64,000 nucleotides of DNA from an uncultured bacterium (GTDB lineage: Bacteria; Cyanobacteriota; Vampirovibrionia; Gastranaerophilales; Gastranaerophilaceae): assembly GCA_949293185.1 (NCBI GenBank), contig CASFCQ010000002.1, positions 1 to 64,000 of the forward strand. The letters are read 5' to 3'. Position numbers and translations under genes: made by a program. Below are positions 11,447-15,244 of the stretch, one piece after another. The notes beneath the pieces were generated by a model, which saw only the letters and a program-made list of their open reading frames with translations, was not told the DNA's origin and searched no databases. The first letter of the stretch is position 1, and each line of letters starts with the position of its first letter.

Positions 11447-11536
11447 AACATCTCCTTTTTCTTTTTGAAAAGGGTAACATTTGTACAGCCATTTGCAATC
11501 ATTCACTAAACGTATCTTTTCTATATAAATGTATAA

Positions 11537-11567
11537 TAAAAAACGACTGATTTCTCAGACGTTTTTT
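11537..11567 (-). terminator. intrinsic terminator, probably bidirectional
   Basis: AAAAACG-A-CTGA and TCAG-A-CGTTTTT flank a four-base loop, giving an A/T-flanked hairpin downstream of the gene at 11595. On the minus strand the stem is followed by a T-rich run. It separates that gene from the frameshifted gene at 11446. Confidence 0.6.
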
Positions 11568-11594
11568 ATTTTTAAATTTTTAATTTTTTATTTA

Positions 11595-12011
11595 TTAGGT
11601 TAATGCAATTTCAGCTTTTTTAATAAATTCTTTAAAAGCTGTTTTTATCTGAGGATTTTTTAAAGCTGATTCGATAGAAAATTTATTTCCGTTAGCTATA
11701 GTCACATCGTGCACTTTTCCTTCTTCAAAGGGTGAATATGCAACGAATGATATTGTTCTTGTGCGAAAATCTCTTTTATCAGCAAGAGGTTCAATGACAA
11801 TAGACGCTTTTTTAATTGCTGAATCTTTCATCGGTTCTTCAATATCTGCTTTTATGGGTTTAAATTTTCCGATTTCAACAATCTGCGAGAACTTTTCTCT
11901 CAACTGTTTAAGCGCCGCATCCAATTTTTGAGAAGATGTCTGCATTACTGCATTATTCATATGCGGTCTTAGCATTCGCTGTGTTGTGGTAGTGGCATTC
12001 AACTTATTCAT
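11595..12011 (-). CDS. unknown small protein downstream of the RelA/SpoT-like gene
   Basis: This 138-residue protein matches no family I recognise. The N-terminus is Thr- and Asn-rich (MNKLNATTTTQRML), followed by a probable amphipathic helix (SQKLDAALKQLREKFSQIV), a basic and strand-rich middle with RDFRTRTISFVAYSPFEEG, and a helical C-terminus (FKEFIKKAEIALT). No signal peptide or membrane helix is seen. The ATG at 12009-12011 has GGAG six bases upstream; an ATG four codons earlier lacks one. It lies 22 bases after the RelA/SpoT-like gene and shares its terminator, so the two are probably one transcript. It could be a partner or antitoxin, but that is inference. Confidence 0.7.
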   Translation of the reverse strand: MNKLNATTTTQRMLRPHMNNAVMQTSSQKLDAALKQLREKFSQIVEIGKFKPIKADIEEPMKDSAIKKASIVIEPLADKRDFRTRTISFVAYSPFEEGKVHDVTIANGNKFSIESALKNPQIKTAFKEFIKKAEIALT

Positions 12012-12033
12012 ACTTATCTCCATTTATTATTAA

Positions 12034-13491
12034 TTATTTCTTTGGTGTAACTTTTTTTAGGTTGGGTTTTCCGTATCTTGACTTTAAAATATTTGCAGTG
12101 TCATCAATTTGCTGTAGAGATTCAAAACTCAACAACGGCTCATATTCTCCAAGTCCAAAATCCGTTAAAATAGGTTTTTGCACAGATATACGCTTCTTTG
12201 TTTCCGGATTTTCGTTGTGTCTTATCCAGGAGTACATTGCTCTTTCGTAATCTGTATATGCAGCTTCTTTTTTAGGATTTCCGAAGACCTCAAAGACTGC
12301 TTTTTCTATACCTATTGATTCGTAATATTTTTCGAGTTCCGGAATATTTTTGCCTATATTTTTCTTTGCAAGAATATCATAAATCAAATGTTCAATCTGA
12401 CCGATTTTATTAAGCTGTTCGCTGCGCAGCTGCAGCTCAACCCATACATATCGTATTTTACCGCTTTTATCTTTAACAGGATGTAAAATATTCATCTGGG
12501 TCGTTGTATAGCCGTTTTGTTTTCTGATTGCACTTGTTTGAACAAGTTCAATCCCGGGAACAGACTGTTTCCAGAGTTTTACGGTATCCTGACTTATGTA
12601 AGGATATATATGTTTTGAGTGATAGTTGCTTACCCTTGTTACATTGAGTTTTCCTGAAAGTATACTGTCTGTCAGATACTGGGCGGCAACAGTCATATTT
12701 GCATTTTCCGGAATCACCATTCTCAACCCGATGAGGTCTTTTATCCATTCTATAGCTTCATCATAATCTCTTTTTCCGGTTGTAAGAATTTTTTCAAAAG
12801 CTTTGTAATCTCTTGATTCAAATTTTACATCACCGTCAAAAACAGAAAGCTTTACAAGTTCTTTTTCAGTCTTATCAAGCAGTTTGTATGGTTTTTGATA
12901 CAACCTTCTCGATAAAATATTCATTATTTCAGTATTAACTTTTTGATCTTTAAACTCTTTTATAATTTTATTGTAGATTGAAACAGACTCTTTGGAAGAC
13001 GGAACACCGTTTTTGCTTCTGGCATGGAGATATTTTCCATAGTTTTTTTCTCCTCCGAAAACAGTTTTTATGTCTTTTATTACCCTGCCTATAGTATCGT
13101 TGCCCATAGTCTCGAGTCTTTTTGCCATCCCTTTATAAAAAGTAGCTTTTTTTACTGCCAGGTTTATGACTTTAGTCTGATTCGGGGTAAACACTTTTGC
13201 ACCGTTAGCTGTAGTTTTTGGCTGCAGCAAAAACATTATTTCATCATTAAAAATTTTTTCTTTTTTTATAAATTCATAATCAACTAAAGTCTGATGCTGC
13301 GTTGCAGATGTCATCTTTTTGGCTTCATTTTTTGTAACGGAAGATGTTGCTGCAGCAGAAAATGTATCTTGCACAGGTGTACGCTCAAGCGGGTTAGTCG
13401 CTGTTTTTTGAATTTGGATGGTTTGCGTTTTTACTTTTTCAGCAGCTCTTGTAAGGTGTTTTATTGCTGAACTTTTGAGTATTTTTATCAT
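12034..13491 (-). CDS. RelA/SpoT-fold nucleotidyltransferase-like protein
   Basis: The product is 485 residues from the ATG at 13491, which has AGGA six bases upstream; a TTG 17 codons earlier is weaker. Residues about 245-375 match the RelA/SpoT synthetase fold: KDLIGLRMVI (251-260, with the catalytic-position Asp252), RKQNGYTTTQM (the family's xNGYxSxH block, with His replaced), and VWVELQLRSEQLNKIGQIEH (Glu352 at the catalytic position). An upstream R-S-K...SIYNKI segment near 158-176 may be the G-loop, separated by an unusual insertion of about 70 residues. No HD hydrolase, TGS or ACT domain is seen. The N-terminal 150 residues are unassigned. It may make (p)ppGpp or modify another nucleotide or tRNA, as toxic small alarmone synthetases do. 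Confidence 0.7.
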   Translation of the reverse strand: MIKILKSSAIKHLTRAAEKVKTQTIQIQKTATNPLERTPVQDTFSAAATSSVTKNEAKKMTSATQHQTLVDYEFIKKEKIFNDEIMFLLQPKTTANGAKVFTPNQTKVINLAVKKATFYKGMAKRLETMGNDTIGRVIKDIKTVFGGEKNYGKYLHARSKNGVPSSKESVSIYNKIIKEFKDQKVNTEIMNILSRRLYQKPYKLLDKTEKELVKLSVFDGDVKFESRDYKAFEKILTTGKRDYDEAIEWIKDLIGLRMVIPENANMTVAAQYLTDSILSGKLNVTRVSNYHSKHIYPYISQDTVKLWKQSVPGIELVQTSAIRKQNGYTTTQMNILHPVKDKSGKIRYVWVELQLRSEQLNKIGQIEHLIYDILAKKNIGKNIPELEKYYESIGIEKAVFEVFGNPKKEAAYTDYERAMYSWIRHNENPETKKRISVQKPILTDFGLGEYEPLLSFESLQQIDDTANILKSRYGKPNLKKVTPKK

Positions 13492-13698: not shown

Positions 13699-14280
13699 AT
13701 GTCTAAACGAAAGATAGCATATATTGTAATTTTGTTGGCAGTAGTTATAGGGTGCAGCTGGGCATTTATTTCAGCAGGAATTATTACAAAAAACTTTAAA
13801 AAAGAAGCACTCAAAAACGCAGGCGAAAAACAGGAAGTCAACGTAAAAAATCTTATTATTACGGAAACTAAAGAAGATAAAAAATACTGGGAGCTCTATG
13901 CCGAAAAGGGTTATTACGACAATCAAAACAAAGTTGTAATACTTTATAATGTTATAGGCAATTTTTACGACAAAGATGAAGTCGTCTTAAGCATGGAATC
14001 ATCTATGGGGACTTACAGTGAAGAAAAGAAAAAAGTCGTGCTTTATGACAATTCTTATTTCATTTATAAAGACGGAACAGATGTCAGGGCAGACCGTTTT
14101 GTATGGCAAGGCAGCGACAAAGATATAACAGCTCAAGGCAACGTAGTAATAAGAAAAAACGGTGAGTTGAGAACATTCAGCAACGAAGCTGTACTAAGCG
14201 AAAAAATGACGAATATAAAAATCATCGGACGCTCAAGAACAGAACTGTATAAAAAGGGGAATTTTGATGGAAAGATTTAA
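13699..14280 (+). CDS. lptC: LPS export protein LptC
   Basis: LptC is the inner-membrane-anchored periplasmic member of the Lpt bridge that passes LPS from LptBFG to LptA. The 193-residue product has one N-terminal transmembrane helix (residues 7-27) and no cleavable signal. A strand-rich domain follows with WELYAEKGYYDNQNKVV and YDNSYFIYKDGTDVRADRFVW, typical of the OstA/LptC jellyroll. It overlaps the next gene, an LptA-like protein, by 14 bases, the usual lptC-lptA order. It diverges from the RelA/SpoT-like gene across a spacer of about 200 bases that should hold both promoters. Confidence 0.85.
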   Translation: MSKRKIAYIVILLAVVIGCSWAFISAGIITKNFKKEALKNAGEKQEVNVKNLIITETKEDKKYWELYAEKGYYDNQNKVVILYNVIGNFYDKDEVVLSMESSMGTYSEEKKKVVLYDNSYFIYKDGTDVRADRFVWQGSDKDITAQGNVVIRKNGELRTFSNEAVLSEKMTNIKIIGRSRTELYKKGNFDGKI

Positions 14281-15244
14281 AAAAATATTTATATCAACCG
14301 TTTTCTTACTAACAAGCGCAGGTATAGCGTTTGCAGCAGATTTGTCTATAGAATCAGACAAACAAACATTTAAAATGGAAGAAAACAAAGCAAAATTTGA
14401 CGGTAACGTAAAAGTTAAAATGGATGATATAAACGCAAAAGCCCCGAGAGCCGAAGTTTTTATCGACCCTAAAACAAAACAGCTTACAGATGCGGTAATG
14501 TATGACCAGCCCTATGTTGTTCAGGTAAAACAGGATAAAACCAACGAAATTAAAGCTAATATTTTAAAAATGTCATTGCTGAATAAAACAATAAAAGCAG
14601 AGGGTAACACACAGACAACCGTTACCCCAAAAGATGCACCAAAGCCTACTGTAATAATAACAGCAGACGCTCAATCTTATGACACAAAAACAAAAACACT
14701 TACAGCGCACGGCGGTGTAATTATTTATTACAAAGATGTGGAAACTTTCTCTGACTCTGCTGTTGCAAACCTCACAAAAAACGGGGATTTACAAAAAATC
14801 ACATTAACAGGACACGGAAGATTAAAACAAAAAGACAGTGTTATCACTGCAGACAAATTTATTTATGATGCAGTGCAGGAAATTGCCTATGGGTTAGGCA
14901 ACGCTCACAGCGACGTGGATATGGATGGCACACGTATAAACGTATGGTCTGACAGACAGGAGTATTACAAAGCATCCAATATAATACAAGCATCGGGCAA
15001 AGTGCATGTTATATACAAGGATTACGATGCAAAAGGACCTAAAGCAACTGTTTATCCTGATCCAAAAACCAACAAGCCTAATGAAATTGTATTTATCGGA
15101 CGTTCAACTATCGTAGAGCAAATGCGTTCTATTGAAGCTGACAGAATCAAAATGTTTATTAACCCAAAAAATTTCTTTGCTGAAGGCAATGTAAAAACAG
15201 TTATAAGAAATGTAGACAGTAAAAGTAATAATTTAACAGAATAA
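14267..15244 (+). CDS. lptA: LptA/OstA-like periplasmic LPS-bridge protein
   Basis: LptA forms the periplasmic bridge carrying LPS to the outer membrane. The 325-residue product starts MERFKKIFIST (ATG at 14267, GGGGA upstream) with a signal peptide ending in AFA at about residue 23. Repeated OstA blocks follow: SDKQTFKMEENKAKFDGNV at the start, ITADAQSYDTKTKTLTAHGG near 130, VITADKFIYDAVQEIAYG near 190 and IEADRIKMFINPKNFFAEG near the end. E. coli LptA is about 185 residues, so this version probably holds two OstA domains. It overlaps lptC by 14 bases. Confidence 0.82.
   Translation: MERFKKIFISTVFLLTSAGIAFAADLSIESDKQTFKMEENKAKFDGNVKVKMDDINAKAPRAEVFIDPKTKQLTDAVMYDQPYVVQVKQDKTNEIKANILKMSLLNKTIKAEGNTQTTVTPKDAPKPTVIITADAQSYDTKTKTLTAHGGVIIYYKDVETFSDSAVANLTKNGDLQKITLTGHGRLKQKDSVITADKFIYDAVQEIAYGLGNAHSDVDMDGTRINVWSDRQEYYKASNIIQASGKVHVIYKDYDAKGPKATVYPDPKTNKPNEIVFIGRSTIVEQMRSIEADRIKMFINPKNFFAEGNVKTVIRNVDSKSNNLTE

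What the first reader, a model, noticed from the sequence alone, without database searches (positions are those of the whole stretch)
11595..13491. RelA/SpoT-fold protein with a co-transcribed small partner: possible toxSAS-like or new alarmone module
The 485-residue protein keeps Asp and Glu at the catalytic positions of (p)ppGpp synthetases (DLIGLR and VELQLRS) but has no hydrolase or regulatory domains, a large unassigned N-terminus and an insertion before the core. A 138-residue unknown gene follows 22 bases later and shares its terminator. Toxic small alarmone synthetases are encoded with neutralising partners. The layout fits, but with a much larger enzyme.
Basis: partly seen in the sequence, partly recalled or inferred. 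Interest (0 to 1): 0.65.

Follow-up and report, generated by a model that had tools for sequence, protein, structure and literature searches.

The report
RelA-type enzyme with dedicated small partner
In Gastranaerophilales gut bacteria, a shortened relative of the stringent-response enzymes RelA/SpoT is encoded next to a small protein of a fold not found among solved structures, and relatives of this pair recur as one replaceable part of very large effector-like proteins, which points to a self-toxic enzyme kept in check by its own partner.

Summary
A 485-aa protein (12034-13491, minus) and a 138-aa gene 22 bp downstream are encoded as described. The protein has an intact RelA/SpoT pyrophosphokinase core: R158/K160/S169/K175, D252, Y328, E352. 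The window lies in a Candidatus Gastranaerophilales genome that also has a complete long Rel.

The linkage is strong. Of 63 partner homologues in 146 related genomes, 61 lie downstream of such an enzyme. The pair sits beside lptC-lptA in all 21 same-genus named loci and in two genomes of a second genus, so it is not a mobile toxin-antitoxin module.

In other genera the same domain is one part of 700-4,355-aa proteins. Many share an N-terminal module that can instead carry AvrB-like, calpain, GNAT or HD domains. The small partner goes with the RelA domain (15/16 giants), never with RelA-less giants (0/46). Calpain-bearing giants have a different small gene, and one giant with both domains has both genes.

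Best reading: the enzyme is self-toxic and the partner is its cognate inhibitor, an immunity-type pair related in logic to toxSAS and exported alarmone synthetases. Inhibition, substrate and export are inferred. Nothing was tested at the bench.

The parts
12034..13491 (-). 485-aa RelA/SpoT-domain protein (single synthetase domain, no HD/TGS/ACT)
13333..13491 (-). residues 1-53, mostly disordered and fast-evolving N-terminal tail
   Evidence: pLDDT <50 for 1-19 and 21-52; dN 0.16-0.83 against 0.04-0.43 in the following helical region
12967..13020 (-). R158-x-K160 ... S169 ... K175: ATP (pyrophosphate donor) motif
   Evidence: R158, K167, K175 at least 90% conserved in A4; numbering; pattern as R64/K66/S70/K74 of FaRel2 (PMC11782079)
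12757..12966 (-). lineage-specific helical insertion, residues 176-245, between donor motif and catalytic Asp
   Evidence: alignments; structure
12721..12738 (-). D252-LIGL-R257, Mg-binding Asp of the synthetase
   Evidence: invariant in A2
12496..12522 (-). K324..G327-Y328..Q332 G-loop; canonical His replaced by Gln in this family
   Evidence: Y328 and Q332 invariant in A4; the canonical GY-x-S-x-H is seen
12424..12438 (-). E352-x-Q354-x-R356, second catalytic acid
   Evidence: invariant or nearly invariant
12379..12393 (-). E367-H368-x-x-Y371 conserved element of the synthetase core
   Evidence: invariant in A4
11595..12011 (-). 138-aa partner (alternative start 12023): flexible N-terminal tail, then helix, four strands, two helices; no match among solved structures
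   Evidence: 61 of 63 homologues downstream of the enzyme
11535..11569 (-). terminator-like hairpin about 25 bp after the partner stop
   Evidence: dG -15.7 kcal/mol, z -7.2; not found by the simple scan
13699..15244 (+). divergent neighbours lptC and lptA that mark the fixed chromosomal position
   Evidence: same neighbours in 21 of 21 genus loci and 2 loci of a second genus; lpt identity from sequence and context, no family search was run on them

Best explanation
The first gene encodes an active RelA/SpoT-type pyrophosphokinase that moves pyrophosphate from ATP to an acceptor: a purine nucleotide, or possibly the tRNA 3' end. It would harm the cell if unchecked. The second gene encodes a dedicated protein of a fold unmatched among solved structures that binds the synthetase domain and holds it inactive. 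Related RSD-partner pairs are used elsewhere in Gastranaerophilales as one interchangeable warhead of giant effector-like proteins, in which at least two warhead types have their own small downstream protein; the window carries a short form retained at one chromosomal site. Shown by sequence: fold, intact and selected active site, obligate-looking linkage, domain-specific pairing, vertical inheritance. Inferred: toxicity, inhibition by the partner, acceptor identity, and whether the short form is exported.
For: Fold and intact catalytic residues. 61/63 partners downstream of an RSD gene, plus divergent partners after two further RSD genes. Among giants sharing the N-module, the partner is next to 15/16 with the RSD (the exception is a contig break whose partner is probably the one at the start of another contig) and 0/46 without it, Fisher p 2e-13. 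The calpain warhead shows the same pairing: a 98/111-aa gene (42% identity, E 1e-18) follows calpain giants, and the giant L058 with RSD plus calpain carries both small genes. Orphan partner in G034 at the syntenic site where G070 has giant plus partner. RSD and partner distances co-vary, r 0.94. Both genes under purifying selection. Exported and immunity-paired RSD enzymes are established (PMC12691689; PMC11782079).
Against: No toxicity, binding or activity was tested. RSD proteins without a recognisable partner exist (the 340-370-aa type B and others), so the domain is not always dependent on it. Both members of the short pairs are basic (median pI 9.7 and 9.3), giving no simple charge complementarity. 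Slow evolution of the partner in this genus is unlike typical diversifying immunity genes. The co-variation would arise from linked inheritance alone. The short form has no giant N-module.
Confidence: 0.5

Rival explanations
1. The partner is a dedicated chaperone, adaptor or activator of the RSD protein, needed for folding, export or activity, not an inhibitor.
For: Enzyme-first order with a small, tightly linked gene downstream also suits effector-chaperone pairs. The giants resemble secreted effectors, and the genomes encode a second, divergent FlhA/SctV export gate. Both proteins evolve slowly and in step.
Against: The partner follows the warhead, not the shared N-terminal module (0/46 RSD-less giants). 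No match to type III chaperones or any solved structure. In the short pairs the partner is strongly basic, whereas type III chaperones are generally acidic (established knowledge). An orphan partner persists without its giant.
Confidence: 0.22
2. A housekeeping accessory alarmone synthetase with a regulatory subunit, part of normal stress signalling.
For: Fixed locus beside lptC-lptA in two genera, near-universal in the genus (21 of 22 other genomes), strong purifying selection, no trace in phages, plasmids or viral contigs.
Against: The genome already has a complete long Rel with HD, synthetase, TGS, RIS and ACT. The family carries H-to-Q in the G-loop and a specific insertion after the conserved NY. 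Its relatives sit in effector-like giants.
Confidence: 0.2
3. A toxSAS toxin-antitoxin or anti-phage abortive-infection module (CapRel/FaRel2-like).
For: Single-domain RelA-fold enzyme with a small co-encoded partner; CapRel is among the top structural matches.
Against: Not mobile: vertical and syntenic. No PADLOC hit above noise. Nothing similar in phages, plasmids or viral contigs. The partner does not match antitoxins of known structure. Enzyme-first order.
Confidence: 0.08

Closest known systems
Small alarmone synthetases RelQ/RelP (SAS1/SAS2)
   Same: Synthetase fold; donor motif, Mg Asp, G-loop Tyr and E-x-Q-x-R in order
   Different: Helical N-terminal region, about 70-aa insertion before D252, extra insertion after the NY motif, G-loop His to Gln, dedicated partner
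toxSAS toxin-antitoxin enzymes (FaRel2, CapRel)
   Same: Single RSD plus a small co-encoded protein; CapRel among the best fold matches
   Different: Enzyme-first order, fixed chromosomal locus, partner of a different, unmatched fold; toxicity and substrate unknown
Exported alarmone synthetases and T6SS effector Tas1/Apk1 with its immunity protein (PMC12691689)
   Same: RSD as an exchangeable warhead on large proteins, some with immunity genes; XopAD-type T3SS proteins with a Rel-like domain are the nearest architectural parallel
   Different: None of the export domains named there was detected here; the paper's main text mentions neither Melainabacteria nor Gastranaerophilales; the partner family matches none found in the searches
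Long RSH Rel/RelA/SpoT
   Same: Shared synthetase domain
   Different: No HD, TGS, RIS or ACT; the genome has a separate full-length Rel

Membership tests
RelA/SpoT (RSH) synthetase domain superfamily | RSH synthetase fold | tested here: met
   Pfam score just under the gathering cut-off, fold matches divergent
RelA/SpoT (RSH) synthetase domain superfamily | Donor motif R-x-K...S...K, catalytic Asp and Glu, G-loop Tyr | tested here: met
RelA/SpoT (RSH) synthetase domain superfamily | G-loop His in GY-x-S-x-H (usual, not strictly defining) | tested here: not met
   Gln332 in this family; Asn in some type B members, His in one
toxSAS toxin-antitoxin module | Co-encoded small protein conserved with the enzyme | tested here: met
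   61/63
toxSAS toxin-antitoxin module | Partner belongs to a known antitoxin or immunity family (e.g. pZFD-type, Tis1, Panacea) | tested here: not met
   no sequence or fold match in Pfam, PADLOC, PDB
toxSAS toxin-antitoxin module | Growth arrest relieved by the partner | not testable with these tools
   bench experiment needed
toxSAS toxin-antitoxin module | Mobile or sporadic distribution, often on phages or plasmids | tested here: not met
   syntenic and vertical; no phage, plasmid or viral hits
Exported alarmone synthetase with immunity protein | Export signal or secretion-system domain | tested here: inconclusive
   no secretion-domain Pfam hit in the window protein or in the giants scanned; no hydrophobic signal peptide seen by eye; signal prediction not available; divergent second export gate in the genome
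Exported alarmone synthetase with immunity protein | RSD as warhead in large modular proteins | tested here: met
   met for relatives, not for the window protein itself

The most novel reading that the evidence does not exclude
Gastranaerophilales carry a lineage-specific polymorphic effector system: giant proteins with a common N-terminal module and exchangeable warheads (RelA-type pyrophosphokinase, calpain-like and zincin-like proteases, AvrB-like, GNAT, HD), with warhead-specific small downstream proteins, possibly exported through a divergent second type III-like apparatus. The window pair is a free-standing relative of its RelA warhead unit with a new-fold inhibitor and, given the G-loop His-to-Gln change, possibly a new acceptor.
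Probability: 0.35. Interest if true: 0.82.

Novelty: new variant of a known kind. Interest (0 to 1): 0.62.

Why it matters
Gastranaerophilales (non-photosynthetic gut relatives of Cyanobacteria) have, as far as these paper searches show, no described effector or toxin systems. A RelA-type enzyme with a dedicated, structurally new partner, found both as a chromosomal pair and as one part of giant effector-like proteins, gives a testable entry into how these bacteria interact with neighbours or hosts. It also extends alarmone-type pyrophosphokinases to a new setting, with an active-site change that may mean a different product.

Tried and rejected
NFxG-type N-terminal motif as a shared export signal: only weakly commoner at N-termini (80 of 725 genes against 61 and 52 in control stretches); not pursued. 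Viral, phage and plasmid origin: no matches. Partner as a known fold: best PDB E 0.17, best viral E 0.019 with TM about 0.4. Relationship of the 120-aa type B partner to the main family: suggestive only (39 columns, probability 77%). Zincin-like module (RHExxH) and other giant modules against the PDB: no significant match, so the HExxH reading rests on the motif alone. PADLOC hit for residues 58-102 (E 0.006): weak, outside the core, ignored.

Full report
What is there. The window lies in a 2.2-Mb genome (95 contigs, 99% complete). Named matches to the locus are almost all Candidatus Gastranaerophilales MAGs. On the minus strand a 485-aa gene (12034-13491) is followed after 22 bp by a 138-aa gene (11595-12011), and a strong terminator-like hairpin follows. 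The genome also has a complete long Rel with HD_4, RelA_SpoT, TGS, RIS and ACT domains and a third, shorter RSD protein of about 357 aa on contig C33.

Is it a RelA/SpoT enzyme? Pfam gives 24.9 bits, just below the 27-bit gathering score. A profile of 35 homologues reaches alarmone synthetases in the PDB at E 2e-8. The AlphaFold2 model (mean pLDDT 85.5) matches small alarmone synthetases and CapRel in its 37 best hits, 16 of them at E<=0.001, with probability near 1 for most. TM-scores are low because of insertions and domain arrangement, so the fold match is clear in kind but divergent. The donor motif lies at R158-x-K160...S169...K175, so the domain starts near residue 150. The window's lineage has a roughly 70-aa helical insertion before D252. 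Y328, E352, Q354, E367 and H368 are invariant in A4, D252 is invariant in A2, and dN/dS in the core is low. The G-loop His of other synthetases is Gln332 here. That may change the acceptor; this is inference.

Is the partner real and linked? It is predicted as helix, four strands, two helices with high confidence apart from the N-terminal tail (mean pLDDT 84.7). It resembles nothing in the PDB or the viral library at E below 0.01. In 146 related genomes the partner profile finds 63 copies, and 61 lie downstream of an RSD gene on the same strand (in one of these, L058, another small gene lies between). One of the other two is at a contig start in a genome whose RSD gene runs off another contig (G085). 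The other (G034) sits at the position where a sister species has giant plus partner (L046 versus L168), apparently a retained partner after loss of the enzyme. Two further RSD genes have divergent partners below the cut-off. The short type B proteins (340-370 aa), a few longer family members and several proteins from other families or orders have no recognisable partner, apart from a 119-125-aa gene after some type B enzymes.

Inheritance. In all 21 same-genus loci from the named collection, and in two genomes of a second genus, the pair lies divergently beside lptC-lptA. RSD and partner distances correlate at r 0.94, as expected for genes inherited together. No similar protein was found in phages, plasmids or viral contigs.

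The wider family. In other genera the RSD lies at the end or in the middle of proteins of 320 to 4,355 aa. The giants are modular: an N-terminal module with glycine-rich hydrophobic stretches, an RHExxH module that looks like a zincin protease (motif only), the RSD, and a C-terminal module with an HD domain. Other members carry GNAT or calpain-like domains. The N-module also occurs in proteins without RSD, including one in the window's own genome that ends in an AvrB/AvrC-type domain (E 2e-12), and others with calpain, HD or GNAT domains. The RSD partner is adjacent to 15 of 16 N-module proteins with RSD and to none of 46 without. The calpain domain has its own small gene: L154 and L058 share a calpain-like C-terminus (30% identity, E 7e-51) and a 98-111-aa downstream gene (42%, E 1e-18), and L058, which has both warheads, has both small genes. 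The AvrB-type giants are followed by a 202-aa gene. So at least two warhead types show a specific small partner, which is the logic of toxin-immunity pairs. A Deltaproteobacterial relative fuses the RSD to a Ppx/GppA-type phosphatase domain in one frame (L139), consistent with nucleotide-phosphate or polyphosphate chemistry.

How it most likely works. The enzyme transfers pyrophosphate from ATP to an acceptor; the partner binds the domain and blocks it, releasing it only under some condition or in a target cell. Shown: fold, intact active site under selection, specific linkage. Inferred: toxicity, inhibition, acceptor, export. Main rivals are a chaperone or activator role for the partner, and a housekeeping synthetase with a regulator, which the fixed locus and slow evolution in this genus favour. 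Both proteins of the short pairs are basic, the giants' pairs mostly acidic, which neither supports nor excludes binding.

Known work. toxSAS and Tas1/Apk1 pairs and exported alarmone synthetases establish the kind (PMC11782079, PMC11559606, PMC12691689). The last describes RSDs on XopAD-type T3SS proteins and other export domains; a search of its main text found no mention of Melainabacteria or Gastranaerophilales. Paper searches found no description of this family, within an open-access library only.

Verdict. Real, conserved, and more interesting than a lone toxSAS candidate because of the partner's fold and the warhead-specific pairing. It remains a prediction about function.

Noticed in passing
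L153:3982-8535 (window's own genome, contig C53) and L155:3191-8200: Giant N-module proteins ending in an AvrB/AvrC-type domain (Pfam hit for L153; L155 is 77% identical to it), followed by a conserved 202-203-aa gene; a possible second effector-partner pair in the same genome.
   Followed up: partly
L169:3455-6912 (own genome C33), L073:2-3310: A second, divergent FlhA/SctV and FliI/SctN-type ATPase pair, besides a flagellar FlhA on C43. An FHIPEP gate is kept in many relatives without detectable flagellin; NCBIfam scores fall below both the flagellar and the T3SS cut-offs.
   Followed up: partly
L169:8550-10069: A shorter RSD protein (357 aa) with a 122-aa downstream gene about 3 kb from that export gate and near a dnaJ-like gene; similar type B genes elsewhere mostly lack a partner.
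   Followed up: partly
L139:1-6714: Deltaproteobacteria GWA2_38_16: a frame of at least 2,237 aa with a Ppx/GppA-type domain directly before the RSD, without the small partner.
   Followed up: partly
L045, L051, L053, L055, L057, L070, L079 (A7): Conserved RHExxHxND module with a downstream E-[FL]-x-AVAxEGD motif, zincin-like, next to the RSD in giants and duplicated in L070; no PDB match.
   Followed up: partly
L020, L021, L022, L023, L025: In part of the genus the enzyme is longer (520-618 aa) and the profile matches it as two overlapping halves, so the insertion before the catalytic Asp varies in length.
   Followed up: no
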